Part shown: positions 11,649 through 57,907 of the stretch, piece by piece
How the letters are laid out: every line of letters starts with the position of its first letter
Position numbering within the stretch: the stretch's first letter is position 1
Position numbers and translations under genes: made by a program
Origin: an uncultured Schlesneria sp.
GTDB lineage: Bacteria; Planctomycetota; Planctomycetia; Planctomycetales; Planctomycetaceae
Direction: 5' to 3'
Length of the DNA stretch: 64,000 nt
Assembly: GCA_903904835.1 (NCBI GenBank)
Contig: CAIVEI010000043.1
Span: 1-64,000, forward strand
Notes under the pieces: model-generated
Told to the model about the DNA's origin: nothing
Seen by the model: the letters and a program-made list of their open reading frames with translations, nothing else
Databases searched by the model: none

Positions 11649-11670
11649 TTAACGGGAAGGGGAGGCTGAC

Positions 11671-11859
11671 CTGATGAAACGACGTGAAGGGAGGATGGTT
11701 GCGGTATTGGGGACGAAGTGCTTTTGAAACAGAAAGTACTGAAAAAAGGGGTGGCACGGTTTTACCATTTTCGGTAAGGCCGTGCACTTCGGATACGTTA
11801 TCCATCGATGAAGACACGGCCTTGTCGAAGACTCCAAAACCGTGGCATCCCGAGTTTCG
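11671..11859. repeat. Palindromic intergenic element, copy A (~190 bp)
   Basis: This segment aligns along nearly its whole length with 28425-28613, both beginning CTGATGAAACGA. Its right end matches 57908-57954. In the right half two arms of about 31 nt are imperfect inverted repeats: the one beginning near 11752 (CACGGTTTTACC) and the one ending near 11843 (CCAAAACCGTGG). Transcribed, the element would fold into a long hairpin. It fills the gap between the beta-propeller and SDR genes. Confidence 0.8.
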
Positions 11860-11922
11860 CCAGTGTGTCAGGTTGCGAGCAAAACTCTCATCGTTAATGC
11901 GACTTTTCAGGAGATTCATCAA

Positions 11923-12618
11923 ATGGCATCAGGTTCCAATAAAACAATCGTCGTCACCGGGGCGACTCGCGGATGTGGACGTGCGATGACCGAGCGATTT
12001 ATTGAAGCGGGGCACGTTGTTGTTGGATGCGGACGCATCGCAACGTCAGTTCATGAAGTGAATGCGATTTTCGGCAAACCTCATCGGTTTGATACGGTCG
12101 ATGTCTCAGACGATCGACAAGTTGAAGAATGGGCCAAGTCCGTCATCGACTCTGGCCTTGTGCCGGATCTGATCGTCAACAATGCGGCGATTATTAACCG
12201 GAATGCTCCTTTGTGGCAGATTACCGCCGAGGAGTTTCAGCAGATCGTTGACGTCAATATTGTCGGCACGGCGAATGTCATTCGGCATTTTGTTCCCGCA
12301 ATGATCGAGCGGGGCCAAGGCACGATTGTAAATTTCAGCAGCGGCTGGGGGCGTTCAACCTCGCCCGAAGTTGCTCCCTACTGTGCCACGAAATATGCCA
12401 TTGAAGGATTGTCACAGGCTCTTGCTCAGGAACTTCCCTCCGGAATGGTCGCGGTTGCGCTCAATCCGGGGATTATCAATACCGAAATGCTTCAGTCTTG
12501 CTGGGCTGACGGAGCGGCACAGTATCCGTCACCTGAACGGTGGAGTCGAGTTGCCGCCCCATACATCTTGAGCATTTCCCCCAAGGATAATGGTCGTCCG
12601 TTGACAGTGCCACTGTAG
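11923..12618 (+). CDS. Short-chain dehydrogenase/reductase
   Basis: This is a classical SDR oxidoreductase (231 aa) with a Rossmann fold. The nucleotide-binding motif is VTGATRGCGRAM, the structural motif is NNAAI, and the catalytic Ser and Tyr-x3-Lys lie in NFSSGWGRSTSPEVAPYCATK. The C-terminus is slightly short relative to the usual 245-250 aa. I chose the ATG at 11923 because CAGGAGA lies 8 nt before it; the longer frame runs back into the repeat element. Substrate unknown. A convergent terminator follows. Confidence 0.87.
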   Translation: MASGSNKTIVVTGATRGCGRAMTERFIEAGHVVVGCGRIATSVHEVNAIFGKPHRFDTVDVSDDRQVEEWAKSVIDSGLVPDLIVNNAAIINRNAPLWQITAEEFQQIVDVNIVGTANVIRHFVPAMIERGQGTIVNFSSGWGRSTSPEVAPYCATKYAIEGLSQALAQELPSGMVAVALNPGIINTEMLQSCWADGAAQYPSPERWSRVAAPYILSISPKDNGRPLTVPL

Positions 12619-12640
12619 TATCAGTTGCGACGGAAAATGC

Positions 12641-12670
12641 AGAAAGCACACGCAATCGCGTGTGCTTTCT
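12641..12670. terminator. Bidirectional stem-loop between convergent genes
   Basis: A perfect 13-bp stem (AGAAAGCACACGC and its complement) closes a 4-nt loop AATC. It lies 22 nt after the SDR stop and 52 nt after the stop of the oppositely oriented lipoprotein gene. No long T-run follows on the plus strand; on the minus strand ATTTT follows. Confidence 0.65.
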
Positions 12671-12722
12671 CGACGTCATCTTAAAGCTCAATCGGCTTTT
12701 TGAGCGGCTTCAATCACCTGAA

Positions 12723-13241
12723 TCACTTCATGAAGAAGTCCGTTGGTCCACGAAGCGTGTAATACGGGTACTGAACCATTCCTGCCGGCACGCCTTGCTG
12801 TGGATAGACCATATTTTGTGGCCAGTCGTATTGGTAAGTTTGGACATGCGTTGGCATTCCGTTTCGGTATCCACATCCACGACCACAACGTCGGCATCCG
12901 TCCTGGGGGCAAGCGCTTCCATCTTGACAGGCTGGACAACCTGACGCATCGACTGTGTAGGCCTGCTTTCCTGGTGGATAGCAACCTTCGGGGCCCTGGT
13001 AAAAGCCCCCTTCGTAACCGTAATTGTGATCCGCCGCGCTGGCGAGCGGCTTGAAATCATGATGATCGTGTGAGCCTAAATAGGGCTTTTTCATCAAATC
13101 CCCATACCCAGGCGCTGATCCTATGATTGGACCGCTACTGTCCGGTGCCTGACCGCGAACGGTCGGGTTGGTCATTGAACAGCCAATTGAGCAACTGACA
13201 GCGACCAATGCCACCAGACTTAAAACTCCGCGAAATTGCAT
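12723..13241 (-). CDS. Small Cys- and Tyr-rich lipoprotein, unknown function
   Basis: The product (172 aa) begins MQFRGVLSLVALVAVSCSIG followed by the lipobox cysteine, so it is probably an exported lipoprotein. The middle is rich in Gly, Tyr and Pro and contains a cysteine cluster (CPACQDGSACPQDGCRRCGR) that could be disulfide-bonded or bind metal. The end is Tyr/Gln/Pro rich. Planctomycetes encode many such proteins with no assigned role. A GGAGA lies 6 nt before the ATG at 13241, which fixes the start; the longer upstream frame is rejected. Confidence 0.6.
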   Translation of the reverse strand: MQFRGVLSLVALVAVSCSIGCSMTNPTVRGQAPDSSGPIIGSAPGYGDLMKKPYLGSHDHHDFKPLASAADHNYGYEGGFYQGPEGCYPPGKQAYTVDASGCPACQDGSACPQDGCRRCGRGCGYRNGMPTHVQTYQYDWPQNMVYPQQGVPAGMVQYPYYTLRGPTDFFMK

Positions 13242-13513
13242 ATTGTCTCTCCGTCCGTAGAGGCTGACGATGCCACTTCGCCGTTGAACGAAGCGTACTT
13301 CCATTGCAGATCTATCGGCGTTTCTCCCATCAAAGTACGGAGATTCCTCAAAGAAGTACCAATTGGAATCTCAAGTACGACTACCCGTTCTTGCAGAAAT
13401 CCCCTAAACGGAGTATTTTAACAAACGATTTCGTATCGCGGCAAAACGCTTTGAAGTCCGATCTGACCCGGACGTTTTGCCCGTGATCACCCAGATCAAA
13501 GGAGTGACAGGGA

Positions 13514-14257
13514 GTGTTCGTCGCCGTCTCATCACAGTGTTTTTCCGATGTCAATTTCGCCGCCGCCTGCCAGAACGCGGCCGACTTGGGTTACGATAAG
13601 ATCGAACTTTGGCTGAATGAAGCTAGCGATCACCTGAAACCCTCGCAGATCGTTGCATCACCCACGAAGTTTTTTCAACTCTATCGCGAGACCACTCGCC
13701 TGACCCCGGTCGCTTTCAACTTGCAAGAGGACGTCCAATTGGACGTATTTGAGGACCTCTGCAAAGTCTCGAAAATGTTGAAAATTACCCAGATTACCAT
13801 GCCGGCGGCCACGCTTGGCACACCTTTTAACGAGGAAATCGATCGTTTGCGAAGTCGACTGGCTGCGTCAAACTCTGCTGGAATCCGACTTTCGCTAAAA
13901 ACGAAGACAGGACATTTGACGGAAGACCCGCAAACAGCTGTCGAACTATGTCAGGCAGTTCCAGGTCTGGGGCTGACACTTGATGTCAGTTATTACATCT
14001 GTGGGCGATATGCCGGACAAAGTTATGACCAAGTCTATCCGTATGTCTACCACACTCATTTGCGGGATACCACACCGAGTCAGGTGCAAGTTCCCGTTGG
14101 ATTGGGCGAAGTTGACTACAGCAGAATCATCAGCCAATTACGCCGATTCAATTACAACCGAGCTCTCTCGGTGGAAATCCTTCCCGATTATCTTCAAGGG
14201 AACGATCGAGCATTGGAATTAAGAAAAATTCGAATGCTGCTCGAAACGCTGCTGTAA
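13514..14257 (+). CDS. Sugar phosphate isomerase/epimerase-like TIM barrel
   Basis: The 247-aa protein has the features of the xylose-isomerase-like TIM-barrel superfamily. These include an N-terminal strand (FVAVSSQCFSD), the segment LGYDKIELWLNEASDHL, a metal-site region with LGLTLDVSYYICGR, YVYHTHLRDTTPSQVQVPVG with His and Asp ligands, and YNRALSVEILPDY near the end. The start is a GTG with GGGAG just upstream. It could isomerise or epimerise a sugar or sugar acid; the substrate is not visible. It stands alone, converging with greA. Confidence 0.75.
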   Translation: MFVAVSSQCFSDVNFAAACQNAADLGYDKIELWLNEASDHLKPSQIVASPTKFFQLYRETTRLTPVAFNLQEDVQLDVFEDLCKVSKMLKITQITMPAATLGTPFNEEIDRLRSRLAASNSAGIRLSLKTKTGHLTEDPQTAVELCQAVPGLGLTLDVSYYICGRYAGQSYDQVYPYVYHTHLRDTTPSQVQVPVGLGEVDYSRIISQLRRFNYNRALSVEILPDYLQGNDRALELRKIRMLLETLL

Positions 14258-14282
14258 AAAGATAATCGATCGTCCGGCTATT

Positions 14283-14332
14283 GAGGAATCACGTCTCTTC
14301 GATTTGAGTGATCTCGAAGTTCGTGATTCCTC
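14283..14332. repeat. 11-bp inverted repeat overlapping the greA stop codon
   Basis: GAGGAATCACG at 14283-14293 is perfectly complementary to CGTGATTCCTC at 14322-14332, with a 28-nt loop. The right arm and loop code for the last greA codons and the left arm spans the stop. It may serve as a terminator or 3'-end stabiliser, although no T-run follows. Confidence 0.5.
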
Positions 14333-14771
14333 TTGGTGCCTGAAACTGAACGTGATCGCCCACTTTCTTGTGCATCAGTGCCGTCGCTAGTGGCGATGCG
14401 GTAAGGATTTTCATCACGTCGCTGGTGTAGTCTTCTTCACCAGGACCGACAAACTCGTACTGCTCAATCGAATTATCGCTGAGATCTTTTACGGTCACAC
14501 GCGTTCCAAAGGTGACGACTCCTTTTGGAAGGCTGGACTTGTCCACGATGAAACAATCGGCAAGCGTGGATTTTAAAGAGTTAATCCTCGCCTGAAGCAT
14601 TCCCTGGGCTTCCCGTTGCCCGTGGTATTCTGCATTTTCACGAAGGTCACCTTCCGCGCGCGCGTCAGCGATCGCTTGAGCAATCTTCGGCATCTCGATT
14701 TCTTCAAGCTGCCGAAGCTCTTCCTTCTTTTTGTCGTAGCCTTCTCGAGAGATTGGCTGTCGTTCCATCAT
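14289..14771 (-). CDS. greA: Transcription elongation factor GreA
   Basis: GreA (160 aa) rescues backtracked RNA polymerase by stimulating cleavage of the nascent RNA. The N-terminal coiled coil contains the family signature ARAEGDLRENAEYHGQREAQ, whose acidic tip residues (D and E of GDLREN) are intact. The C-terminal FKBP-like domain has GTRVTVKDL, YEFVGPGEED and SPLATALMHKKVGDHV. Length and motif order are standard. It is a single gene, downstream of and possibly cotranscribed with the Gfo/Idh gene (64-nt gap). Confidence 0.95.
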   Translation of the reverse strand: MMERQPISREGYDKKKEELRQLEEIEMPKIAQAIADARAEGDLRENAEYHGQREAQGMLQARINSLKSTLADCFIVDKSSLPKGVVTFGTRVTVKDLSDNSIEQYEFVGPGEEDYTSDVMKILTASPLATALMHKKVGDHVQFQAPRGITNFEITQIEET

Positions 14772-14835
14772 CTATGTCCCAAACCGAAAATCATTGAAGT
14801 ACGCTGAATTATACCAGCGCCAGAGCCAGTTACTA

Positions 14836-15969
14836 TTAGATATCAGTCCAACTGCCCGACTTGGCACTGGAAAGGACCGCGTCGCAAATCTTTTGGGTTT
14901 CCAAAGCATCACGGAATGTTGGACCCACCGAAATACCTTTATCGACCCCTTCCAGGAAGTCGGCAACGTGATGAACAAAAGTGTGTTCATAGCCAATCTG
15001 AAGACCAGGAACCCACCAGTGGCTCATATAAGGGTGGTCGCCGTCGGTGACGTGGATTGATCGCCAGCCTCGAAGATTGCCTTGGTCTTTGTGGTCGAAC
15101 CACTGGAGTCGGTGCAGATCATGCAGATCCCACTTGATCGAGGCGTGTTCGCCGTTGATCTCGAGCGTGTATAAAGCTTTGTGTCCACGTGCATAACGCG
15201 TCGATTCGAACAAGCCCAGCGAACCATTTCCAAATCGGCACAAGAACGCACAAGCATCGTCGATGCCAACCTTTTCGACCTTACCCGTCAAATTGTGCTT
15301 ACGTTCTTTAATGAACGTCTCGGTCATTGCCGTGACGTTTTGGATGTTGCCGTTTAACCAGATGGCCGTGTCGATGCAATGTGCCAGCAAATCGCCGGTC
15401 ACACCGCTTCCAGCGGCGGCGGCATCCAGTCGCCACAAGGCTGTGCCGCCCTGCGGAAGATCAGCTGAAATTGTCCAGTCCTGCAGAAAATTGGCTCGAT
15501 AATGAAAAATCCGACCCAGTTTTCCCGAATCAATCAATTGCTTGGCGAATGTGACGGCAGGGACTCGACGATAGTTGTACCAGACCGTATTCAGGACTTT
15601 TGCCTTTTCGACTGCCTGACACATCGTTTCGCCTTGCGCCGTATCCATCGCAAGTGGCTTCTCACAGAGAATCATCTTTCCATTTGCAGCGGCAGCAATT
15701 GCAATGTCGTGGTGAAGATTGTTAGGGGTGCAGATATCAATCGCATCAATATCTTTTCGCTCGACAAGTTTCCGCCAATCCGTTTCGATCGATTCGTAAC
15801 CCCAACGATCGGCAAATGATTTCACCTTCTCGGCATCGCGAGCGCAGACGGCCTTCAGTACCGGTTGATGATCGGTGTCAAAGAAGTGGTTTACTTTACG
15901 ATACGCATTGGAGTGCGTTCGTCCCATGAATCCGTATCCAACCATGCCGATATTCAAAGGCTTCGCCAT
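14836..15969 (-). CDS. Gfo/Idh/MocA family oxidoreductase
   Basis: This is a 377-aa NAD(P)-dependent dehydrogenase. The Rossmann motif is [14 protein letters not shown], followed by [20 protein letters not shown] and the catalytic-lysine motif LCEKPLAMD. The C-terminal beta-sheet domain contains [20 protein letters not shown]. Enzymes of this kind oxidise or isomerise sugars, inositols or sugar acids. The start at 15969 is chosen because CAGGAG lies 9 nt upstream; a GTG six bases earlier is possible. It precedes greA. Confidence 0.9.
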
Positions 15970-16159
15970 CTTCACTGTCTCCTGAATCTCTGAAGTTCAT
16001 CTATTGCTTGCGGCTCATCATGACTGTCATTGGGCTCGACGAAGATTGGCCGATTCCAAGACGGGTAAGCATCATACGCGCAGTCCGATGTTACCTGCAA
16101 ACGGACCGCAAAGACTTCTTTTCGATTTTGTCATCGGACACCAAATTTACGTATCCTGG

Positions 16160-17263
16160 TCACCCGTACATACGGGCCAATTCTCGTAGTTCATCAAGGA
16201 CATCTTCGACATCGGGCACGACCGCCCCGCACACTCGGCCACCCCGATCACAGGCACCCAACCGTAAAAGATCTTCGTAGTCGTCAGACTCTTTCAATCG
16301 GAGATGTGCCCTGTGACCGATTGTCCGGTCGCGAATTTTATGCACATCCATGTGATGTTCAATCAGCCATGCTGTTCGTTGTGTGATGTGACCGTCAAGC
16401 GCTTCCAATCCGGCTTGAACGTGATTGTGTTTATCGAGTCCCTTACCAACGTCGTGCAGTAAAGCTGCAAGCTGGAATTCCTCATCATACGGAAGTTCTT
16501 CCCTGGCAAGAACATAGCACTGAAGAAGGTGGTATAAAACGTCCCCCTCAGGATGGTAGTGTTCATCCTGCATCACAGTTTCCAGGGGAATCAGAAGCGA
16601 CCGATACACCTGGAAACGATCAATCGCCGCTTCTGCCGCTGCCAGTTCGTTTTCCAGGTCCGAATCGGGGTATTCATTTCGCAAGAATGCTTCATATTCA
16701 GCAAGTGTCGCTCGCTCCATCGCTTTTCCGGTGATTGAGCTTTTGAAAACAAAGCTTGCTTTGTCGGGCGAATACATCGTCAATTCAATTGGAAAGCGAT
16801 CACGAATATGAATATGAGTGAAAACTCGTTCTTCGCCGAGCTTTCGAACTCGCTTCCGCTCAACGTCGTAGTCAATCCCTTCTGCGTCAAGACTGCTGGT
16901 CACGGCTTCGACGCTTGCGGCAAATACGTGGATATCGATATCCGACCCCTGTCGAATATGCCCAGTAAAGGTGCTCCCGATAATCTTGGGGCGACAATGA
17001 GCCAGCATTCGCATGATGCGTAGTGCTTCGACACGCATCTCGCGCAATCGGTCATAGCGAGAATTTCCCTCGAACAAATTTGCCATCCGTTGAATTTCAT
17101 CGCGAATTTCAGCGTTGCTGGGAAGTTCAGAAGGTTTGAGCCAGCCTCGGCAAAGTCGTCGTGCCGCTTTCATCTTTGCTCGGAAATACTCGGTTTCGCT
17201 ACGCGAGTACATCATACGAGCGGCTTCAACGATAATGCCGCGTCTCAGTTTTTCGTCACTCAT
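16160..17263 (-). CDS. Nucleotidyltransferase-HD domain fusion protein
   Basis: The 367-aa protein combines two domains. Residues about 90-190 carry a polymerase-beta-like nucleotidyltransferase motif, with G96-S97 in IGSTFTGHIRQGSDIDIHVF and acidic pair D108/D110. Residues 240-340 carry an HD phosphohydrolase domain with H245, H270-D271 in LAALLHDVGKGLDKH, and H303-H304. This resembles the layout of bacterial CCA-adding enzymes with HD domains and of GlnD/uridylyltransferase, but the flanking domains differ. RNA or nucleotide metabolism is likely; the exact substrate is not visible. It could also be a signalling enzyme. Confidence 0.7.
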   Translation of the reverse strand: MSDEKLRRGIIVEAARMMYSRSETEYFRAKMKAARRLCRGWLKPSELPSNAEIRDEIQRMANLFEGNSRYDRLREMRVEALRIMRMLAHCRPKIIGSTFTGHIRQGSDIDIHVFAASVEAVTSSLDAEGIDYDVERKRVRKLGEERVFTHIHIRDRFPIELTMYSPDKASFVFKSSITGKAMERATLAEYEAFLRNEYPDSDLENELAAAEAAIDRFQVYRSLLIPLETVMQDEHYHPEGDVLYHLLQCYVLAREELPYDEEFQLAALLHDVGKGLDKHNHVQAGLEALDGHITQRTAWLIEHHMDVHKIRDRTIGHRAHLRLKESDDYEDLLRLGACDRGGRVCGAVVPDVEDVLDELRELARMYG

Positions 17264-17289
17264 TCGAGTCGTGTCGGTTTTTTGTGGCG

Positions 17290-17490
17290 ATGAATTCGCA
17301 TCGAGTTCATTCGCACGTGAAAATCGTCTATGCCACCGAGCCCATCAAGGCCGACACCGGGCTCTTCTGGCTGGCATCGATTCTAGCGCGCTACAGTTTC
17401 TCGTCAAGTTGCCAAACAATTCACGTTGACCCTGAAAACCGACTGGTGATACAAGGCGCTCGTTCGTTGGACGAATTTGGTCTGCATTGA
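17290..17490 (+). CDS. Possible small protein, weak
   Basis: A short frame (66 aa) reads plausibly, with AMINO-acid composition like VKIVYATEPIKADTGLFWLA and IHVDPENRLVIQGARSLDEF. It is divergent from the nucleotidyltransferase-HD gene with a gap of about 26 nt. I see no clear ribosome binding site and no recognised domain, so this may be chance. Confidence 0.3.
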   Translation: MNSHRVHSHVKIVYATEPIKADTGLFWLASILARYSFSSSCQTIHVDPENRLVIQGARSLDEFGLH

Positions 17491-17541
17491 TTCGTTGCCA
17501 AGAAAAATCTCGGATCGGTTTGGGCAAAAGGGTATTTGCAC

Positions 17542-18378
17542 ATGCTTCAAAAATGGATTTGTAGCTGCGGTGTATTATTGGTCGTCACGGCCACCGCATT
17601 GTCTGACGAAACCCCAGCCGCACGGGGTGTGAAGAAGCAGCGTGTTTCGCCAAAACTTTTACGTGAAGCGATGGCGCTTCCGGAATATCGAGGGCAGCCT
17701 GCGCCAACATCTCCCCCACCGTCGCTTGAGCATTTGCAGCGCCTGTCCGAAAAGCTGAAGACGAACGGTGATACTGAAGGCAGCGAATTACTTCAACGAT
17801 TTATGCAAGAACATCAGCGGCTCGCCAATCAATCGGCTCGCCTGGCCGAAAATCAGACTGCACTAAACGTTCGCTGCCAGGTCATCGAAGTTCAAACGGA
17901 AAAGCTTCCCGCGGATTCCATCCTGCACAACGGTTTGCCGGATCGCCAACATACAGACGCGTTCTGCAAAGAATTGAATCAGGCCGTATTGGCAAAACAC
18001 GCTACTTATTTATTTGAACCTGTAACCCTTTTAACTCGGGTGAATGAAATCGGCCATTTCCATCAGGGGGACGAATTCTCATTCCCGTCGTCTGATGGAA
18101 GCCCAGCCAGCAAATTTCGGCGAACCGGCACGATCATTGAAGTGTTCGTCACACCTATCGAGCACGACAAGAACCGCCTTGAATTGGTTATCGAATTGAT
18201 TGACCCAGTGTCAGTCCATGCCTCGAATGACTCGGATTCATCATTGAATACATCGGGCCATCGAAAGATGGAAGCAACGATTGAAGCGGTCATCGGCGAA
18301 TCCACCGTTCAAACGATCCCTTCGGAAAGACCGGGACGTAAGATCTTTTGCATTACGAGAATCACTCCCAAGAAGTGA
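17542..18378 (+). CDS. Exported protein, possible secretin-like beta domain
   Basis: I do not recognise this 278-aa protein with confidence. It has a signal peptide (MLQKWICSCGVLLVVTATAL), a helical region (about residues 60-115), then a beta-rich domain. The segments VRCQVIEVQTEKLPADSI and RLELVIELIDPVSVH resemble the alternating pattern of a secretin-domain strand, but this is weak. The ATG at 17542 is preferred to a TTG at 17536; an AAAAGGG lies about 10 nt upstream. It lies 52 nt before the DUF1573-like gene, probably in the same transcript. Confidence 0.6.
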   Translation: MLQKWICSCGVLLVVTATALSDETPAARGVKKQRVSPKLLREAMALPEYRGQPAPTSPPPSLEHLQRLSEKLKTNGDTEGSELLQRFMQEHQRLANQSARLAENQTALNVRCQVIEVQTEKLPADSILHNGLPDRQHTDAFCKELNQAVLAKHATYLFEPVTLLTRVNEIGHFHQGDEFSFPSSDGSPASKFRRTGTIIEVFVTPIEHDKNRLELVIELIDPVSVHASNDSDSSLNTSGHRKMEATIEAVIGESTVQTIPSERPGRKIFCITRITPKK

Positions 18379-18430
18379 CCAACACCTTCAGTTCAAGTTA
18401 CGACTGTTCAAAAGTATCGGGAACGCAATT

Positions 18431-19252: not shown

Positions 19253-19296
19253 CGGGTGTTCAAATCAGATCACATGAGTTGATTGATGCTGATTTC

Positions 19297-20842: not shown

Positions 20843-20850
<8 letters not shown>
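19297..20850 (-). CDS. hemG: Protoporphyrinogen oxidase (FAD-dependent, HemY/HemG type)
   Basis: This 517-aa flavoprotein catalyses the six-electron oxidation of a porphyrinogen to a porphyrin in heme synthesis. The N-terminus has the dinucleotide-binding fold [19 protein letters not shown]. There follows the family motif [20 protein letters not shown], and the C-terminus contains [20 protein letters not shown], which closes the FAD site. The ATG at 20850 overlaps the end of hemE by 8 nt, consistent with translational coupling. Gene symbol hemG is used for this FAD type in many annotations; hemY is an alternative. A coproporphyrinogen oxidase of this fold (CPO pathway) cannot be excluded from sequence alone. 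Confidence 0.88.
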
Positions 20851-21889
<1,039 letters not shown>

Positions 21890-21975
21890 ATCGGCTCCGG
21901 TCATAAGGGATCGGATTGTAGCGCGACCGGACGCTTAAGGGAAACGCAAACAAACCATTTCATGCACGAAAATTG

Positions 21976-22377
21976 TCAATGACTGACGAAAGGAGCGATT
22001 AGTCCCAGCGCACCTAGAAGGCTCATGAGCGCTGCCAGCACGTAAGCAGGTGAAAAAGAAAGCGACGGATCGTAAGCGTGAAGTCGTTTCGTTCTCTGAC
22101 GATGTTGCCAGCAAGCCATGGCCAGTGTGACCACTCCGATCACGATCATCAGCAAACCTGTCGGACGAGCTCCCAGAAAATGAGGGGGATGCCGTAACGG
22201 GTCTTGCTCGTGCAGGTATTCGAAAAACTTGTTTAATGTCAGCCCGAACGTTACCAGCGATGTTCCCGTCCGAACCCATGCTAAAAGTGTACGCTCGTAA
22301 GCCAGTAACGTCCGTTCAATCGCCATTTGCCCCTGATCAGGTGGTGGCATGGGCTTCTTAGGTTCATTCGTTGTCAT
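21976..22377 (-). CDS. DUF202 family membrane protein
   Basis: The 133-aa protein has the DUF202/YidH signature: the segment ERTLLAYERTLLAWVRTGTS followed by LVTFGLTLNKF, then two more membrane segments (GLLMIVIGVVTLAMACW and YVLAALMSLLGALGLIAPFV). The family is of unknown function and is related to the VTC1-like transmembrane domain. A proline-rich N-terminus (KPMPPPDQ) precedes the domain. It precedes no obvious partner. Confidence 0.85.
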   Translation of the reverse strand: MTTNEPKKPMPPPDQGQMAIERTLLAYERTLLAWVRTGTSLVTFGLTLNKFFEYLHEQDPLRHPPHFLGARPTGLLMIVIGVVTLAMACWQHRQRTKRLHAYDPSLSFSPAYVLAALMSLLGALGLIAPFVSH

Positions 22378-22453
22378 GGCCTGCTATCCGCGAAAAAAAC
22401 TTGACCACGAATCTCATCCTTGCGCGTCGGCAAAATAGTTCTGATGAACGATC

Positions 22454-23254
22454 TCACGCTCGCTGGTAAACGCGAACATAGTCCACCAGAAACTGTCGTG
22501 GAAAAGGCGTACTGGCATCAGGGTTTCCGAGAAAGTTACCCCCGATCGCGAGATTGAGGATCATGTGAAAACGCTGATCGAACGGAGCGGGATATTTCCC
22601 TCCATCGGAACTCCATTCCTTCTGAGTCTGATAAAGTTCACCATCGACATACCAACGGATGATGCCTTCTTCCCATTCAACCGCGTAGTTGTGAAAGTCG
22701 TCTGTGAAGTTTCCGCTCTCCAGTTTTTTCTGTCCGGTGATGTATTTGTTGCCGGGCCACTTTTTGCCGAAATGCAGCGTCCCCAGAACGACATTGGGTT
22801 CCTGGCCCTTAAATTCCATGATGTCGATTTCACCGCTAGAAGCCCAGGTGCCGTAAACTTCGTCGGTGGGCAACATCCAGATGGCGGGCCAGACTCCCTG
22901 GCCCGCTGGCAGTTTTGCACGGACTTCGAACTTGCCGTATTTCCAGTCACCGCGATGTTTGCTTCGAATTCTGGCCGACGAATAATCTCGAACAGTTCCA
23001 GCAATGTCGCAACGTTCCTTTCGTGCTTCCAATACTAAGTGACCGTCTTCGACGCGGAGGTTTTCCTTCCGATCAGTGTACATCTGAAGTTCCTGATTCC
23101 CCCCGCCAAACGAGTTCACTTCCGCTTCCCACTTGCTGTAGTCAAGCGATTTGCCATCAAACTCGTCGCTCCAGACAAGTTTCCATTCCCGATTTTGTGC
23201 TGATACTGACGACGCAAGAGCTAAAAACGACAACAGGACTACTGATCGAAACAT
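22454..23254 (-). CDS. Glycoside hydrolase family 16 (beta-glucanase/laminarinase-like)
   Basis: This 266-aa secreted enzyme has a signal peptide (MFRSVVLLSFLALASSVSA) and the GH16 catalytic motif GEIDIMEFKG with nucleophile E142, D144 and acid/base E147. It also has the substrate-cleft segments GVWPAIWMLP and FHNYAVEWEEGIIRWYVDGE. The family hydrolyses beta-1,3- or mixed-linkage glucans or galactans; the extra residue in the motif (E-x-D-x-x-E) is that of laminarinase-type members. The gene stands alone in the minus direction after DUF202. Confidence 0.92.
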   Translation of the reverse strand: MFRSVVLLSFLALASSVSAQNREWKLVWSDEFDGKSLDYSKWEAEVNSFGGGNQELQMYTDRKENLRVEDGHLVLEARKERCDIAGTVRDYSSARIRSKHRGDWKYGKFEVRAKLPAGQGVWPAIWMLPTDEVYGTWASSGEIDIMEFKGQEPNVVLGTLHFGKKWPGNKYITGQKKLESGNFTDDFHNYAVEWEEGIIRWYVDGELYQTQKEWSSDGGKYPAPFDQRFHMILNLAIGGNFLGNPDASTPFPRQFLVDYVRVYQRA

Positions 23255-23598
23255 CTATTGGCTTCTCAAAAAAAGGGAAATGTCGTGAAGGGACTGCAGT
23301 ATCCGTCGAAAGGCTGAATGATTAGTACTCGATACAGATCCGAAGCAATGTGCTGCGAGCAATGTCGTCTCATAAAGTAATTGGATTCCTGCTGCTCGAC
23401 CAGTCTCAAGCCGAGCGATTGCGTTGCGTATCGACCCAATCCCGACGTTCCGCGAAGACTTTTTCATGCTCGTCGATGCGCGTGACTGAAGAGTGCTACT
23501 GAGCGTGGTTTCCGAAGAATTTTGGCTGAAGTTTTGGTAGATTCAAATTTTGACAACAAATTCATCATCTTGGCAGTTCTGATCCTGTGGAGTTGAGC
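23255..23598. other. Divergent intergenic region
   Basis: The 344 bp between the divergent GH16 and ComF-like genes holds promoters for both. I see no repeat family, hairpin or convincing small gene; a 70-codon minus-strand frame ending at 23255 has no recognisable features. Confidence 0.5.
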
Positions 23599-24381
23599 AT
23601 GATCCGTTTCAACGATTCCATGAAGTATTGCCAAATCAAAACCGAAGCGATTCTTGCACCGTTTTTCTCCGCGGCGATCAATTTTGTTTACGCTCCGACA
23701 TGCCTGTTTTGTGACCAGGAAGTCAATCCTGTTGGCCACAACTTCTGTGAATCCTGTCGATCGAAACTGAAGCCGGTTCATTCGCTTGAATGCGCCCGCT
23801 GTGGTGCTCCCGTCGGACCCTACACAGATCTGACCCGCGGATGTGGCCAGTGCCATCGAGAAACTTTCGCTTTCGATGGAGTAATTCGCCTGGGTGTCTA
23901 TGACGGCCAGATGCGATTGGCCTCGCTTCGTGCAAAAGCCTCCGGGGGGGGAAGTCTTGCTCGCGGGCTGGCCGATCTCCTGGTTTACCAGAAACGAGCG
24001 AAGTTTGATGAACAAGACTTTGATCTTGTCATTCCGGTCCCGGAACATTGGACAAGACGCTTTCTGCATCCACACTACGCAGCCGAAACAGTCTCACGAC
24101 AGATTGCTCGTAGACTTCATGTTCCATGGAGCCGTGAAATTCTCTTAAAGTCGCGTCGGACCCCCAAACAAGCGACCAGTCCTACTCCTCTTCGTCGTCA
24201 GCAGCAACAAGGTAGCTTTGCGGTCTCTCGTACGAGGCAAATTTCAGGAAAAACTATACTTCTCGTCGACGATATTTTAACAACGGGCTCCACCGCTCAT
24301 GCGGCAGCGAGGACACTTAAGGATGCCGGAGCCACATACGTGATCGTCGCAGTCATTGCCGTCAGTCCGTTGCGCAAATAG
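23599..24381 (+). CDS. ComF family phosphoribosyltransferase-like protein
   Basis: The 260-aa protein joins a zinc-binding domain to a phosphoribosyltransferase fold. Cysteine pairs are visible in PTCLFCDQE, NFCESC, ECARCGAP and GCGQCHRE. The PRPP-binding loop is ILLVDDILTTGSTAHAAAR. ComF proteins are needed for DNA uptake in naturally competent bacteria, but in many organisms the role is undefined. The start is the ATG at 23599, with TGGAG 7 nt before it. It converges with nrdR with a 12-nt gap. Confidence 0.85.
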   Translation: MIRFNDSMKYCQIKTEAILAPFFSAAINFVYAPTCLFCDQEVNPVGHNFCESCRSKLKPVHSLECARCGAPVGPYTDLTRGCGQCHRETFAFDGVIRLGVYDGQMRLASLRAKASGGGSLARGLADLLVYQKRAKFDEQDFDLVIPVPEHWTRRFLHPHYAAETVSRQIARRLHVPWSREILLKSRRTPKQATSPTPLRRQQQQGSFAVSRTRQISGKTILLVDDILTTGSTAHAAARTLKDAGATYVIVAVIAVSPLRK

Positions 24382-24393
24382 CGAAATACGTGA

Positions 24394-24855
24394 TCACCGA
24401 GGACTGTCACCGCGAATGATTGGCTGAAGCTCTTCCACAAAGTCGTTGACGTCCTGGAATTCACGATAGACGGATGCAAAGCGGACGAATGCGACATGGT
24501 CCAGATGCCGCAACGATTCCATGACCTTTTCACCAATTTCGCGTGACGGGACTTCTCGATCAAATTGTTCGTAAAGATTCGCTTCGATTTCCGAAATGAT
24601 ATTTTCGATCTTCTCATCGCTGATCGGTCGTTTGTAGCAGGCTTTTTCCAACCCGGACTTGATCTTTTCTCTCTGAAAGGGAACTCGCGTTCCGTCTTTC
24701 TTAACAACTTTGATCGGAGAATCTTCAATCTTTTCGTAAGTCGTGAATCGTCGATCACAACTAAGGCACTTCCGACGTCGCCGAATCACGAATTGCTGAC
24801 TGGCGCGCGAATCGATGACGCTCGTGTCTTCGTGGCGACAAAACGGACACATCAT
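24394..24855 (-). CDS. nrdR: Transcriptional repressor NrdR
   Basis: NrdR (153 aa) represses ribonucleotide reductase genes in response to dATP/ATP through an ATP-cone. The N-terminal zinc ribbon is intact: [17 protein letters not shown] with a second pair in [16 protein letters not shown]. The ATP-cone follows with [18 protein letters not shown] and the C-terminal stretch [20 protein letters not shown]. All typical and full length. No nrd genes are in the window. Confidence 0.95.
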
Positions 24856-25409
24856 GATCGCAAACTCCTGTCATTCCAACAATCGAGGGGAAATTGTGGT
24901 CACTTCTTTGCCACTGATAATCCCACAAAGCTAAGCCGCTGTTCCCTTCGATATCATCCCTGAAAATACATTACATCCGAAAGTGAGAAATCGCTAGATG
25001 TTAAGGCGTGAATTCTAACAAATTATTCAATTGGCAAACTTCCCAATGTGAATATGTTGCGAAAATCGAAGCGAATGACGACTTGCGAAGTTTCTGGCAG
25101 AAACCGCGACTTTTCGGGCGTCGGCTCACAACATGGCAAGCCAATCGGACCAGGCCAGATTTCACTGAACCAACGTGCCCGGAGCATCCGATACATCGAA
25201 GGCGTTCAGAACCGAACTGTATGGCATCATTTAGTTTCCGGCCGTAAAGGATTGCCCAGCCGGAAAAGTCACCTCAATCGAAAAAGTTGTTTTTGAATTC
25301 CACTATTGGAGTTCCAGAAACACAGGTTGCCGGTGATGGATGTATTGAAATTGACTCGACCCGAGCCGTCACACTTTGTGATGGCTCGCAATAGTTTTTG
25401 AGGAACAGG
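24856..25409. other. Intergenic region of 554 bp
   Basis: The stretch separates divergent nrdR and the proline-rich exported protein. I found no protein-coding frame I believe in. It contains a hairpin at 25363-25387 and a shorter one around 25299-25313 (GAATTCCA with a near-complement). Their role is unknown. Confidence 0.5.
25363..25387 (+). promoter_or_regulatory. Hairpin 22 nt upstream of a start codon
   Basis: Arms GAGCCGTCACA and TGTGATGGCTC are complementary except for one G-T pair, with a 3-nt loop. It lies in the leader of the following gene and ends shortly before the AGGA that precedes the start. It could be a short attenuator/terminator or simply structural. Confidence 0.35.
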
Positions 25410-26972
25410 ATGCCTCACATGAATCTTCGATTAACGTTGCCGATTATTTTCGTGTTCGCTTTTCCCCACCTTATCATGCCCGTTCAGGCGCAAGTTGTCC
25501 CGGGAACCGGGCAACAAATCATCGAAGTCTTTGATGACTTTGAAGACCCAGCCTGGGCTTTCAATCTGAATTTGCCAAAGTCGAGTGCCAACATCGACAA
25601 GGTTGAACGACATCCGTCGGGCTTCTCGAACAATCGTTTGTATCTGGAAAGCCTGTATCGCGGCACTCCTGACTTTGTGCGTCGGGTTGAGACGCCTCCC
25701 GGTGGTTTGCCCGGCAGTACCGGGGCTCTGGCGATGCAGACCATGCACTCCGGTGTTCCAGGAACGACTTCGGCCACGTTTCAGCAGGATGACCTGATTG
25801 CTGGCGTACAGCAAAAACTTGGATACATGATGCCTGTATCCTGGACCCCCAGCTACGTCGTTCGCGTCTATATTCCGCCATTCGACAAATGGGAACAGCG
25901 ACACGGTAGCCATTTTGGTTTTCGCGCCGATTGTAACACGACCATTGATAAGCCAACAAAAATGGGGCGTTTCTTCAAATCCATGGGAACCACAAAAAAG
26001 CTCGAGCAATACTGGCCGGGCTTTTTCGTCCAACTCCATCTGAAACAAAAGTCGGGTGAGAAAGAAGACTACGCCACGATCCTGATCCGTTCCGATCAAA
26101 ACGGCAATGATGTTCCCGGACCCAAGATTACTCGTCCAGGATGGTGGACTTTGGGTTTATCGTTTACTCCCGATGGAAAAGTCCATTACTACGCCCATGA
26201 AGGTGTCGCAAACCTGACCGCCAAAGACCACCTCTATTCGAATTTCCCGTATGGGTATCGTTGCGAACAAACGAGCACATTCTTCTTTAACATCGTGAAC
26301 CAGGATGATGGGCGTACCTGGTCAACTCGCTGGATCGTTGATGATCCGAAGGTTTATGTTGCGTCGGGAACCTATCGCCCGCCGGTTCAACAACAGATGG
26401 CTCAAAAGCCACAACCACCTGTCCAACCAGTGCCGCCAGCTCAAGTAGCAGCACCGACTCTACAACAGACCCCTGTTGCGAAGTCAGCCCCGCCGATTAC
26501 ACAGAACCCTGCGGCGATCCCATTGCTGCCTCCACCTGTCGTAACAAAAGCTCCTTCCACATTGCCTTCGACCACCGCTGCGACGCCAGTCAAGCCGGCC
26601 ACTAATGCTCAGCCAGTTCCCATGATTGCTTCAAAACCGATGGACGTTCCTGCGGTCGCTCCTAAAGAAGAACCGAAACCTGAGCCAAAGCTTGAACCGA
26701 AGGTCGAACCTCAGCCAGAATCAAAACCGGTGACCGAGCCGGAGCCAAAATTCGAGCTTCCAATACCGACCCCGCTTCCGTTGCCGGTTCAAGAATCAAA
26801 ACCAGAAGTCATTCCGGAATCCAAACCGGAAGTCCCTGCAATCGCTCCGCCTGACGCGCCGGTGATCGAAGAACAACCGATGATCGAACCACCTCCGTCG
26901 CTGGAAGCAGGCCCTACACCCGAGAAACCGTCGGAACCGTCTCCGCCTCCAGTTCCGACATTGCCTGAGTGA
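25410..26972 (+). CDS. Exported protein with long Pro/Glu/Lys-rich tail
   Basis: The product (about 520 aa) has a signal peptide ending near LIMPVQAQ, a beta-rich N-terminal domain of about 310 residues, and a disordered tail. The N-terminal part contains FDDFEDPAWAFNLNLPKSSA, a W-rich middle (WTPSYVVRVYIPPFDKWEQR) and FFNIVNQDDGRTWSTRWIVD. This could be a jelly-roll/concanavalin-type sheet, but I recognise no family. The tail alternates Pro with Glu, Lys or Gln, including several PKPEPK-type repeats, and could span the periplasm or cell wall. AGGA lies 5 nt before the ATG at 25410; a second Met at 25419 is also possible. Confidence 0.65.
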   Translation: MPHMNLRLTLPIIFVFAFPHLIMPVQAQVVPGTGQQIIEVFDDFEDPAWAFNLNLPKSSANIDKVERHPSGFSNNRLYLESLYRGTPDFVRRVETPPGGLPGSTGALAMQTMHSGVPGTTSATFQQDDLIAGVQQKLGYMMPVSWTPSYVVRVYIPPFDKWEQRHGSHFGFRADCNTTIDKPTKMGRFFKSMGTTKKLEQYWPGFFVQLHLKQKSGEKEDYATILIRSDQNGNDVPGPKITRPGWWTLGLSFTPDGKVHYYAHEGVANLTAKDHLYSNFPYGYRCEQTSTFFFNIVNQDDGRTWSTRWIVDDPKVYVASGTYRPPVQQQMAQKPQPPVQPVPPAQVAAPTLQQTPVAKSAPPITQNPAAIPLLPPPVVTKAPSTLPSTTAATPVKPATNAQPVPMIASKPMDVPAVAPKEEPKPEPKLEPKVEPQPESKPVTEPEPKFELPIPTPLPLPVQESKPEVIPESKPEVPAIAPPDAPVIEEQPMIEPPPSLEAGPTPEKPSEPSPPPVPTLPE

Positions 26973-26999
26973 CATTATCTTCGTCTGTGAGCAACAACT

Positions 27000-27479
27000 A
27001 TGTTGAAACTCTGGCTGGTAAGACACGGAGAAGCCGTTGATCCTGATTTGGCGCGTTCGGATTTTCACCGAACGCTGACGGAAACCGGTCGACAGCAGTT
27101 GACCGGTTTGACGCGATGGCTGATTGAACGTGTCGAACCGCCAGAACTGATCCTGCATAGTCCGCTGGTTCGTGCACAACAAACTGCGGAAACAATCGCG
27201 GCAGAAATCGGAGCCGATATCGTGACGGTTCGCCTGGAAGAAGCCCTTTCTCCAGGGATCGACATCGATGAATTGCTTCGTCGAGTCGCCAGCACGGCGG
27301 CGGAACGGATCGTCTGCGTCGGACATCAGCCAGACATGAGTCGTTGTCTGGCTGACATGATCGGCGGCGGCACGATTCATTACTCGCCCGGAACGATTGC
27401 CGGAGTGGAATTCAGCGGCCCCATTGTCAGGCACGGTGGACGCCTTCGCTGGTTGGCTGATCCACATTGGTTCGGCTGA
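27000..27479 (+). CDS. sixA: Phosphohistidine phosphatase SixA
   Basis: SixA (159 aa) is a small member of the histidine phosphatase superfamily that dephosphorylates phosphohistidine, e.g. in two-component HPt domains. The RHG motif is intact: LWLVRHGEAVDPD (R8, H9, G10). The second cluster ILHSPLVRAQQTAETI with the further Arg and the C-terminal catalytic His in CVGHQPDMSRCLADMI are all there. Length is normal. It is 27 nt after the proline-rich gene, converging with the DUF1570-like gene. Confidence 0.9.
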   Translation: MLKLWLVRHGEAVDPDLARSDFHRTLTETGRQQLTGLTRWLIERVEPPELILHSPLVRAQQTAETIAAEIGADIVTVRLEEALSPGIDIDELLRRVASTAAERIVCVGHQPDMSRCLADMIGGGTIHYSPGTIAGVEFSGPIVRHGGRLRWLADPHWFG

Positions 27480-27492
27480 GTTTCGCCGTTCG

Positions 27493-28320
27493 TCACTTCA
27501 AATGATCGATAATCGCCTGATCCAGATTCGGAATCCGTTTTCGCAACAGCTTACTTAACGGCGTCTCCTGGGCACCCGAATTGATCTCTTCAAAGTAAAT
27601 ATCCAGGGCCATTCGCGCTTCCTTTGGACCGTGAAGCAGAAAATGGACAATGCCCCACGAATCGCGATAGTCCTTACCATTCATGTCGAGCAGTTTTCGC
27701 TTCGCCTCAAGCTTTTCAATATTTGGCCGCCATCCCTGGTACCGAATCGCGTCACGCAATTCTTTCCGATGCGAGTGTCCTTTCTCTCTTGATGACCCGG
27801 GCATTTCAAAATATTCCGCCAACCCCTCGTCGATCCAGATCGGGACGTAGGGAAGTGCCGTATGCAGCAACGCATGAGTCGTCTCGTGCCGAACATCAGT
27901 TTCCAGATCGCGCTGGCGATACGCATAAATCCGACCGGTACCGGGATCGGTGCCCGGGACATACAATGCCTGGCGATTGATCCCTTCGGGAATTCGAACC
28001 CGCAAGTACTGGTCGTAGCTGCGTTTACTTTGAAAAAGATGAATCTGAATTGATTCCGGCTGGCATTTCAGTCGGAGTGTTTCTTCCAGATCCTGTTGCA
28101 GGTCACCCAGGTCTTGAACCAGACCATGCACGTCCTGAAGAGGAAACTCCGACCGAATCAAGTACGGTCCCAATTCCCGCTCTTCAGCCCATTGCGAGCT
28201 GTCAGCTTGCCCACGTCCACCGCCCCACGTGAAGCTTGATTTGATCCGACTCCACGGAGATGCATTCACTGACGCCGCAGCGATCAAAATCAGACACGCA
28301 GTCAGCGGGGCATAACGCAT
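27493..28320 (-). CDS. DUF1570-type putative zinc metallopeptidase
   Basis: The 275-aa exported protein (signal peptide MRYAPLTACLILIAAASVNA) has a gluzincin-like zinc motif RHETTHALLH with H145, E146, H149. The third ligand is likely the Glu in WIDEGLAEYFE (E165 or E169). This arrangement matches DUF1570/peptidase-MA-like proteins frequent in planctomycetes. Function unknown; cell-wall or matrix proteolysis is possible. The true start is at 28320; the in-frame extension to 28569 runs through a palindromic repeat element and is spurious. Confidence 0.78.
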   Translation of the reverse strand: MRYAPLTACLILIAAASVNASPWSRIKSSFTWGGGRGQADSSQWAEERELGPYLIRSEFPLQDVHGLVQDLGDLQQDLEETLRLKCQPESIQIHLFQSKRSYDQYLRVRIPEGINRQALYVPGTDPGTGRIYAYRQRDLETDVRHETTHALLHTALPYVPIWIDEGLAEYFEMPGSSREKGHSHRKELRDAIRYQGWRPNIEKLEAKRKLLDMNGKDYRDSWGIVHFLLHGPKEARMALDIYFEEINSGAQETPLSKLLRKRIPNLDQAIIDHLK

Positions 28321-28424
28321 GTCGCGCGGTATATGAAGTGATCCCAGTTCGGTCAAGATGTCTTGACGGCTCAACACTTCAGGCAGAATGGGTAATTGAG
28401 GCGTCGGGCAGGAGTTCCACAGGA

Positions 28425-28613
28425 CTGATGAAACGAAATGAAGTCGGGCTGTTTGCGTTGCTGGGGACGATGTGCCTTGGGAACAGATAGCCGTGAAAAA
28501 GGGTGCCACGGTTTTACCGTCTTCGGTAAAGCCGTGCTCGTCGAAGACGTTATCGATCCATGAAGACACGGCCTTGTCGAAGACTCCAAAACCGTGCCAC
28601 CCTAAGTTTTGCG
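28425..28613. repeat. Palindromic intergenic element, copy B (~190 bp)
   Basis: This is a second full copy of the element at 11671-11859, in the same orientation. The internal arms at about 28506-28536 and 28567-28597 are imperfect inverted repeats of about 31 nt (CCACGGTTTTACC versus CCAAAACCGTGG). It sits upstream of the DUF1570-like gene and creates false N-terminal extensions in both strands. Confidence 0.82.
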
Positions 28614-28744
28614 TGCCATTCAGGACATAACGAGCAACAGTATGACCTTACGCCAGTTCGGCCGTTTCATCATGGCAGTGTGCCACGGGCGTGCGACTTA
28701 GCTCGCCAGTGCTCTTTTGATCGCGCCACGAGAATAATATCGGC

Positions 28745-50148: not shown

Positions 50149-50340
50149 ATCGTCTACTCCATAAAAAACCAGATATTCTGTTCCGTAACGATCGAAAGAA
50201 ACAAAGGGAATAGTTCCAGTTTGAGAACAAAAAGTGGACATTTCCAGGTGTTTTCAATTTATTTTGACACCAAATGACCTGTCCGCTTTTCTTCAGCACC
50301 ACCACGAATGACCTGGCGCGGGCTTCGCCCGCAACCGAAT

Positions 50341-50418
50341 GGGAGGGCGAGGCTCCTGCCGAGCCGCCGAGTCGATGCGTGTACCTACTTCACGGCTCGG
50401 CGGGAGCCTCGCCCTCCC
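50341..50418. repeat. Long hairpin repeat (GGGAGGGCGAGGCTC family)
   Basis: Two 26-bp arms at 50341-50366 and 50393-50418 are inverted copies with one mismatch, separated by 26 nt. GGGAGGGCGAGGCTC elements that read EGEAPAEP in one frame are frequent in planctomycete hypothetical ORFs, from memory; that is prior knowledge, not shown here. Confidence 0.85.
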
Positions 50419-57733: not shown

Positions 57734-57907
57734 CGAACACGATCTCCTTGTTTTCTGGGATTGATAACGGGAGCGTCGACCTGATACCCGATAAATCCCG
57801 ATTCAAATCGTGATGATTCAATTGGGAGCGTTCTTACGAGGCTCGCTCCAATGACATGCCGTCAAACTTTATCGCCGAGATAAGATTATCGACTATCGAG
57901 ACGAGAC

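What the first reader, a model, noticed from the sequence alone, without database searches (positions are those of the whole stretch)
11671..28613. Repeated ~190-bp palindromic intergenic element (copies A, B and truncated C)
Copies at 11671-11859 and 28425-28613 align over nearly their full length, with a truncated third copy at 57908-57954. Each contains two ~31-nt inverted arms that would form a stable hairpin; one arm reads like a peptide (HEDTALSKTPKP) in annotations, so it is often mistaken for coding sequence. Such a uniform, dispersed element with no transposase may be a REP/MITE-like family mobilised in trans.
Basis: seen in the sequence. Interest (0 to 1): 0.55.

Follow-up and report, generated by a model that had tools for sequence, protein, structure and literature searches.

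The report
Mobile hairpin repeat in Schlesneria genomes
The repeat is one of many copies of a short, gene-less, apparently mobile DNA element in one genus of planctomycete bacteria that carries a pair of mirror-image hairpins; the enzyme that moves it is not known.

Summary
The repeat is real and not local. The host genome has 71 copies of one arm (up to 3 mismatches; reversed control 0) and 198 exact matches to the hairpin unit GTG[C/G]-CAC-N9-GTCTTC-N9-GTG. Units often form inverted pairs, most often 64 bp apart. Across genomes stems keep pairing through two-sided changes, so the single hairpin is the conserved unit. Of 297 genomes of the class, only the window's genus (Schlesneria by relatives' record titles) has more than 6 units. 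The element is longer than reported: 257-283 bp with terminal inverted repeats. Copy B is near full length, copy A lacks its 3' end, copy C is one arm. Relatives lack the insert at both window sites. Flanking direct repeats are suggestive (p=0.003 in this genome) but not significant in the independent part of a second genome (p=0.18). The same kind of hairpin pair also sits inside another terminal-repeat element with clear 9-11 bp target duplications. No enzyme was identified; no Y1 gene examined has intact units on both sides. New variant of a known kind.

The parts
11667..11882 (+). Copy A of the element: 5' terminal repeat TGACCTGATGAAACGACG at 11667-11684, 3' end missing
   Evidence: profile match window 11655-11882, model positions 2-230 of 283; site empty in G001 (37 bp in place of 257), G006 (61 in place of 310) and G007 (62 in place of 299)
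11749..11784 (+). Copy A, arm 1 (hairpin unit, foot GTGG)
   Evidence: model match 11749-11850
11815..11850 (-). Copy A, arm 2 (inverted hairpin unit)
28421..28677 (+). Copy B, near-full element (about 257 bp) with terminal inverted repeats ACTGATGAAACG / CCGTTTCATCATGGCA
   Evidence: profile match 28419-28679, model 12-272; G005 has 32 bp in place of 314, G001 114 in place of 384
28501..28536 (+). Copy B, arm 1
28567..28602 (-). Copy B, arm 2
28414..28423 (+). Possible direct repeat left of copy B (GTTCCACAGG, 8 of 10 like the right one); overlaps the uncertain first bases of the element
   Evidence: the G005 site without the insert holds GTGCCACAGG once on that strand
28680..28689 (+). Possible direct repeat right of copy B (GTGCCACGGG)
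57894..57959 (-). Copy C: arm-2-only remnant
   Evidence: profile positions 144-209; exact arm 57910-57939
50340..50419 (.). Palindrome GGGAGGGCGAGGCTCC..., the same sequence type as the outermost bases of many copies (landing site or element end, not resolved)
   Evidence: inverted repeat I4; GGGAGGGCGAGGC-like sequence (9 of 13 or better) on at least one side of 8 of 21 full copies in G000 and 11 of 16 in G005

Best explanation
A non-autonomous mobile element of 257-283 bp. Its core is an inverted pair of REP-type hairpins (unit GTG[C/G]-CAC-N9-GTCTTC-N9-GTG, usually one 'Y' apex and one 'Z' apex, most often 64 bp apart, spacer ends CTCTTCG...CGAAGA). The outer parts end in terminal inverted repeats (TGGCCTGATGAAACGRCC, perhaps preceded by GGGAGGGCGAGGC). 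Shown: copy number, dimer geometry, stem covariation across subfamilies, terminal inverted repeats, sites without the insert in relatives. Suggestive only: 8-10 bp direct repeats at the ends. Inferred: a transposase supplied in trans moves the whole element, most likely one that makes staggered cuts, by analogy with the second terminal-repeat element that carries the same hairpin type and has clear target duplications; the hairpin core is a recognition unit, probably for a Y1 (HUH) transposase now or formerly in the lineage. Copies near gene ends may also act on transcripts, but nothing tested here requires that.
For: Copies: 71 and 75 arm matches, controls 0; 198 exact units in the own genome, 0 to 553 in the 15 genus genomes, reversed control 0 in all 15. 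Unit as pairing element: 127 distinct units in the loci then held, 72.2% of N9 pairs standard vs 51.7% shuffled, 256 two-sided changes vs 97 (sd 11), 0 of 1000 shuffles reach it. Dimers: 28 of 47 at 64 bp, 37 of 47 Y/Z heterodimers by my own apex rule. Element limits and terminal repeats: profile of 71 loci, 17 of 59 well-scoring copies complete at both ends. Insertion: sites without it, or with other repeats, in relatives for both copies. Direct repeats: own versus permuted flanks p=0.003, 21 copies in G000. Second vehicle: terminal repeat CAACGCCGTGAAGGATTTTT, duplications in 9 of 14 end pairs (4 exact 9 bp, 1 of 8/9, 2 of 10 bp with 10 and 9 matches, 2 of 11 bp with 11 and 10 matches read from the printed flanks), with a hairpin unit of this family inside 6 of 13 good pairs.
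Against: No transposase with these terminal repeats was found; a search of the own genome for the A-type terminal repeat (up to 3 mismatches) gave only 8 sites, none paired around a gene, but it misses most diverged ends. The end positions used in the G000 direct-repeat test were chosen after a scan of the same copies (best z 3.76 of 7344 settings). In G005 all 16 full copies give p about 0.003, but 6 of them share flanks with G000 copies; the other 10 give p=0.18. Five of the 16 G005 insertions match the same G000 locus on both sides, so part of the family is inherited, not newly inserted. 3' outer sequence is more often the reverse complement of GGGAGGGCGAGGC (6 of 16 in G005) than a direct copy (4 of 16), which leaves open whether it is element end or target. 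Alignment ends bunch at the hairpin feet (16 of 59 copies start at model 70-95, 14 of 59 end at 190-222), from local-alignment trimming or from movement of the core alone.
Confidence: 0.65

Rival explanations
1. Ordinary REPIN/BIME family: only the 102-bp hairpin dimer moves, processed as single strand by a RAYT-type Y1 enzyme; the outer inverted repeats are older palindromes it landed in.
For: Arms conserved above the loop and outer parts; the same core type in two different outer contexts and in core-only copies; alternating unit arrays in relatives (six units in L297). IS200-like Y1 reading frames have a unit within 400 bp in 7 of 40 cases against 0 of 53 for the other Y1 frames, and unit counts follow the number of IS200-like genes per genome (Spearman 0.72, p=0.002; other Y1 genes 0.003; n=15, not corrected for descent, gene counts assigned by me from Pfam scores). 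L107 (own genome) and L192 (G011) have a unit on one side of the Y1 gene and a fragment resembling the start of a unit on the other.
Against: Matched terminal repeats are not expected of it, nor are the target duplications of the second vehicle. Among the 7 near cases L157/L163 and L108/L162 are pairs of close relatives in the tree at like distances from the gene, and L157, L163 and L154 carry the B-type terminal repeat beside the unit (one end only visible in L154, at a contig end), that is, they look like inserted vehicles. No intact unit on both sides in the 83 loci examined.
Confidence: 0.24
2. A host RNA element (terminator, attenuator or mRNA stabiliser) that happens to be repeated; the hairpins are kept by selection on transcripts.
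For: Strong predicted RNA fold; of 38 copies with both neighbours called, 11 lie between convergent and 4 between divergent genes, against 2 and 8 of 26 gaps of 100 bp or more in the window (crude gene calls).
Against: The long hairpin shows no compensatory change beyond shuffles among 55 copies (1 pair with two-sided change, shuffles 4.2). Sites lack the insert in relatives. No Rfam family matched in the window.
Confidence: 0.06
3. A 5'-truncating retroelement or ribozyme-bearing repeat (the 5' part reads CTGATGAAACGA, like a hammerhead core; resemblance recalled).
For: 5'-truncated copies exist.
Against: CTGATGAAACG is the terminal inverted repeat and recurs inverted at the other end; 3' truncations also exist; no Rfam hit in the window.
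Confidence: 0.01

Closest known systems
REPs, BIMEs and REPINs (PMC2817692 and PMC3733652 read in passages; PMC3116915 seen in a listing only)
   Same: Short palindromes with a foot, many mostly intergenic copies, head-to-head dimers with a conserved spacer and two apex types, alternating arrays in relatives
   Different: Foot is GTGC or GTGG before CAC, not GTAG; no Y1 gene found with intact units on both sides; the dimer lies inside elements with terminal repeats
Bacterial MITEs (general knowledge)
   Same: Short, no gene, terminal inverted repeats, presence/absence between relatives
   Different: Centre is a REP-type dimer; no parent insertion sequence found; target duplication clear only for the second vehicle
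REP dimers inside long palindromes in A. variabilis (GTAG-15) and H. neapolitanus (CGTC-1), and TIRYT/TIRtron repeats (PMC3733652, passages and section 16)
   Same: REP dimer nested between inverted repeats; Y1 genes with long terminal repeats
   Different: Other sequences and phyla; no target duplication is mentioned in the passages read
TnpAY1 subclass 1.2 (PMC6006769)
   Same: 35 of 86 Y1 proteins here carry its [DN]HuH and Y---Q--HH signature
   Different: That paper's table says 'no' REPs for subclass 1.2; here repeats found on both sides of three such or closely related genes (L102, L107, L108) recur inside terminal-repeat elements (L108's frame lacks the Y motif)

Membership tests
REP / REPIN | Short palindromic, mostly intergenic, high-copy repeat | tested here: met
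   198 exact units in 8.18 Mb; 67 of 71 cores outside called genes by a crude gene model
REP / REPIN | Inverted dimers with conserved spacing | tested here: met
   47 dimers in the loci held, 28 at 64 bp
REP / REPIN | Hairpin kept by compensatory change | tested here: met
   across subfamilies: 0 of 1000 shuffles; not within the own genome's 55 copies
REP / REPIN | GTAG or GTGG tetranucleotide foot | tested here: not met
   arm 1 of 55 copies: GTGC 36, GTGG 18, other 1; arm 2 likewise 37, 15, 3. GTGG is a minority, GTAG absent
REP / REPIN | Cognate RAYT gene flanked by the repeat on both sides | tested here: not met
   no intact unit on both sides in 15 of 15 own Y1 loci nor in 68 further loci of the genus (83 loci, 144 matches); L107 and L192 have a unit and a fragment
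REP / REPIN | Cleavage by its Y1 transposase | not testable with these tools
   needs protein and ssDNA substrate
MITE | Short, non-coding, multicopy | tested here: met
   257-283 bp, 71 copies
MITE | Terminal inverted repeats | tested here: met
   TGGCCTGATGAAACGACC ... TTGGCCGTTTCATCAGACCA in the profile consensus and in single copies
MITE | Target-site duplication (the element of the finding) | tested here: inconclusive
   p=0.003 for 21 copies in G000, ends chosen after a scan; p=0.0034 for 16 copies in G005 but 0.18 for the 10 that share no flank with G000
MITE | Target-site duplication (second vehicle with the same hairpin type) | tested here: met
   9 of 14 end pairs, 4 of them exact 9 bp; mixed flanks reach 8 of 9 in 0.5%
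MITE | Related autonomous element in the genome | tested here: not met
   no terminal-repeat pair around a gene at up to 3 mismatches for the A type; B type only partly surveyed
CGTC REP | CGTC foot | tested here: not met
   foot GTGC or GTGG
Rfam RNA family | Score above gathering threshold | tested here: not met
   0 matches in the window

The most novel reading that the evidence does not exclude
A modular traffic system: small terminal-repeat vehicles that duplicate 9-11 bp of target pick up interchangeable REP cargoes, including repeats that flank IS200-like subclass 1.2 Y1 genes on both sides, and deliver them into other palindromic repeats. REP spread in these genomes would then owe as much to staggered-cut transposition of vehicles as to single-strand processing by Y1 enzymes, and subclass 1.2 would gain REPs that it was said to lack.
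Probability: 0.32. Interest if true: 0.65.

Novelty: new variant of a known kind. Interest (0 to 1): 0.43.

Why it matters
How REP sequences spread is an open question: Y1 enzymes cut some of them in vitro, but dispersal has been hard to show. Here hairpin dimers sit inside elements with terminal repeats, in one vehicle type with clear target duplications, and that vehicle carries several unrelated repeat families. That gives a second, testable route of dispersal. It also warns annotators that arm-2 peptides such as HEDTALSKTPKP are not coding.

Tried and rejected
The window's own record was not named, so the genus rests on relatives.

Hammerhead or retroelement reading of CTGATGAAACGA: dropped once the same motif appeared inverted at the other end.

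Cognate RAYT: all 15 own Y1 loci and 68 further loci from 14 other genomes of the genus were scanned (83 loci; one search lists 144 matches in 15 genomes, so many in G003, G004, G006, G007, G010 and G014 were not examined). None has an intact unit on both sides. The excess of units beside IS200-like Y1 frames (7 of 40 against 0 of 53) shrinks because of related pairs and inserted vehicles. My scans with loose patterns were too narrow or too noisy to use. The element beside L192 lies outside that gene's own GGCCC-type repeats.

Within-genome covariation: none beyond shuffles for the long pairing or the two local hairpins. It appears only across subfamilies (that set includes chance hits from unrelated bacteria, which were not removed, and shuffling ignores relatedness).

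Direct repeats of the A type: a scan over 7344 end settings gave a best z of 3.76. I first took G005 as an independent repeat. On checking, 6 of its 16 full copies share flanks with G000 copies (5 on both sides of one locus), and the other 10 give p=0.18. I also withdrew my reading that the outer GGGAGGGCGAGGC is certainly the landing site. L081's apparent B-type terminal repeat looks like chance.

The class-wide pattern search had 5 hits in the reversed control over 297 genomes, so single hits outside the genus are not evidence. Own-genome model and DNA searches scored only the best candidates (40 of 129; 100 per genome), so those counts are lower bounds.

Literature: only names Schlesneria (with 'palindrom': 1 paper, on Gemmata, listing seen only). 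Searches searched REP, RAYT, REPIN or MITE terms, some with planctomycete names; no title listed was about REPs of this genus. That speaks for this open-licence library only.
Full report
Observation. Copies A (11671-11859) and B (28425-28613) are similar over almost their whole stated length (82%) and C is a one-arm remnant. Both fold far better than shuffles. The family is genome-wide: arm 2 occurs 71 times and arm 1 75 times with up to 3 mismatches in 8.18 Mb, with no match for the reversed patterns. I fetched all 71 arm-2 loci and lined them up; 59 have a recognisable arm 1, of which 55 went into alignment A1, four with inserted or variant spacers left out.

Anatomy of the core. Consensus: GGGTGCCACGGTTTTACCGTCTTCGGTAAGGCCGTG, a 30-nt spacer CTCTTCGGACACGTTATCGAACCATGAAGA, then CACGGCCTTGTCGAAGACTCCAAAACCGTGGCACCC. 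The two arms pair with each other, but arm 1 and the reverse complement of arm 2 each also fold alone. They are the same 36-mer except for five positions at the apex. Among the 55 copies the long pairing shows no compensatory change beyond shuffles, nor do the local hairpins, so copies within this genome mostly record decay.

The unit across genomes. Reducing the arm to GTGSCAC-N9-GTCTTC-N9-GTG gives 198 exact matches in the own genome, 553 in G005, 187 in G001, 68 in G002, 65 in G012, 61 in G010 and G011, 17 in G008, 16 in G013, 11 in G014, 4 in G006, 2 in G004 and none in G003, G007, G009; the reversed control is 0 in all 15. Different genomes favour different stems. Over 127 distinct units in the loci then held, 72.2% of the N9 pairs are standard against 51.7% when the two halves are shuffled, with 256 two-sided changes against 97 (sd 11), 0 of 1000 shuffles (shuffling ignores relatedness, and chance hits from other bacteria were kept). 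Units form inverted pairs: 47 exact dimers in the loci held, 28 at 64 bp, 37 with one Y and one Z apex by a rule of mine. The spacer ends CTCTTCG and CGAAGA are seen in both the CACGG and CACTG subfamilies. Over 297 genomes of the class, 24 have any match, with at most 6 units outside the window's genus and 5 reversed-control hits in all. Record titles of matching contigs are mostly Schlesneria (capped list; taxonomy).

The whole element. A profile over the 71 loci extends to 283 positions and ends in inverted repeats. Of 59 copies scoring at least 100 bits, 17 are complete at both ends; others lack one or both outer parts, with ends bunched at the hairpin feet (local alignment may cause part of this). 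Copy B is nearly complete (28419-28679), copy A ends at model position 230, copy C covers 144-209.

Insertion. In relatives the neighbouring genes of copy A are still adjacent but the site holds 37 bp in G001, 61 in G006 and 62 in G007 instead of 257, 310 and 299; G002 (up to its contig part held) and G005 carry other repeats there. At copy B, G005 holds 32 bp instead of 314 and G001 114 instead of 384; G002 carries another repeat. On the other hand, 5 of 16 full copies fetched from G005 lie at the same place as a G000 copy (flanks match on both sides), so part of the family was inherited from a common ancestor.

Direct repeats. Copy B lies between GTTCCACAGG and GTGCCACGGG (8 of 10 alike), and the G005 site without the insert holds GTGCCACAGG once on that strand. 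Testing copies with both ends, the best 8-10 bp direct repeat near the terminal-repeat boundary is better in the true pairing of flanks than in permuted pairings for 21 copies in G000 (p=0.003; 0.0026 on repetition), but the boundary range was chosen after a scan of these copies. For 16 complete copies of 20 fetched from G005, p=0.0026 (0.0034), but without the 6 that share flanks with G000 the remaining 10 give p=0.18. Single clear cases are L372 (AGGGCGAGG twice), L385 (8 of 9), L053 (9 of 10), and L374 (9 of 10, shared with G000 L049). Outside the boundary a GGGAGGGCGAGGC-like sequence (9 of 13 or better) stands on at least one side in 8 of 21 G000 and 11 of 16 G005 copies. On the 3' side it is inverted in 2 and 6 copies and its GGGCGAGG part direct in 4 and 4, so it may be a longer terminal repeat or a palindromic landing site such as the one at 50340-50419. 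I leave that open.

A second vehicle. CACTG-type dimers in G005 lie inside 190-bp elements with another terminal repeat, CAACGCCGTGAAGGATTTTT. Its first 19 letters plus C, up to 3 mismatches, occur 37 times in G000, 65 in G005, 41 in G001 and 27 in G002, controls 1-2. Of 14 end pairs with readable flanks, 4 have an exact 9-bp duplication (L277, L355, L362, L363), one 8 of 9 (L281), two 10 bp (L358 exact, L347 9 of 10), two 11 bp (L352 exact, L359 10 of 11, read from the printed flanks); L348, L354, L356, L357 and the poor pair L286 have none that is convincing. Targets are mostly CC...GG palindromes. Interiors differ: 6 of the 13 good ones hold a unit of this family, the others other repeats. 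Of 13 interiors compared with the 83 Y1 loci, L352 and L359 match both sides of Y1 genes L107 and L108 (and one side of L151, a gene of the other group), L355 matches both sides of L102, the six with our units match one side only, and four (L347, L356, L357, L358) match none.

Which enzyme. The genome has 15 Y1 genes. A midpoint-rooted tree of 80 proteins falls roughly in two halves. One is IS200-like (L157, L162 and L107 above the cut-off of NF033573, L192 below it); the other includes REP-associated tyrosine transposases (L115 above, L113 below the cut-off of NF047646). 35 of 86 proteins have the HuH and Y---Q--HH signature of subclass 1.2, for which PMC6006769 lists no REPs (sections 12, 13, 17, 18, outline and passages read). 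Units lie within 400 bp of 7 of 40 IS200-like frames and of 0 of 53 others, and unit counts follow the number of IS200-like genes (Spearman 0.72, n=15, uncorrected). But no gene has intact units on both sides. L107 and L192 have a unit on one side and a unit-like fragment on the other, and several neighbours look like inserted vehicles. I therefore leave the enzyme open. That the whole element moves by a staggered-cut transposase is inference from its terminal repeats and from the second vehicle.

Known relatives. Head-to-head REP dimers, heterodimers and REP dimers nested in long palindromes are described in PMC3733652 (passages and section 16 read); GTAG and GTGG feet in PMC2817692 (passages read). 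In PMC8266576 (passages read) the GTAG foot is crucial for the E. coli enzyme and more tolerant of change in two others. This family shares the plan but has mostly a GTGC foot (36 of 55 copies in arm 1, 18 GTGG), no cognate gene found, and lies within terminal-repeat elements. Hence: works like a REP dimer carried by a MITE; not filed as a canonical GTAG REP.

Role in the host. Copy A lies between a beta-propeller/arylsulfotransferase-like gene and a short-chain dehydrogenase gene, copy B between a GFO/IDH/MocA oxidoreductase gene and a DUF1570 gene, copy C between a pectate-lyase-like gene and a DUF4404 gene. Crude gene calls place 67 of 71 cores outside genes, and 11 of 38 with both neighbours called between convergent genes. 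A transcript role is possible and untested.

Noticed in passing
window 10-42, 54929-55111: Copies of a GTAG-tagged hairpin repeat (GTAGGGTGGCGTCGAGTCTTCGAGGCCCACCA type). A close version flanks the REP-associated transposase gene L115 of the same genome on both sides, a textbook REP arrangement.
   Followed up: partly
window 54416-54879: Cluster of direct repeats built on TCGAACTTGATCGAACT, with a 162-bp unit repeated at 90% identity.
   Followed up: no
window 31933-32822: Long run of CCACCGCC-type repeats inside a 1724-codon reading frame, probably a low-complexity stretch of a large protein.
   Followed up: no
copy A site in G002 (L328) and G005 (L330): The same intergenic spot is occupied by other palindromic repeats in two relatives, so it looks like a hot spot for repeat insertion.
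   Followed up: partly
L042 (G000:C88 about 117355-117534): Arm 1 of one copy has expanded into a run of about seven 15-bp tandem repeats ending GGTAAGGCCGTG or close to it, suggesting slippage in the hairpin.
   Followed up: no
L102-L109: Eight IS200-like Y1 genes in one genome, most with long inverted repeats of different sequence around them; the literature read lists no REPs for this subclass.
   Followed up: partly
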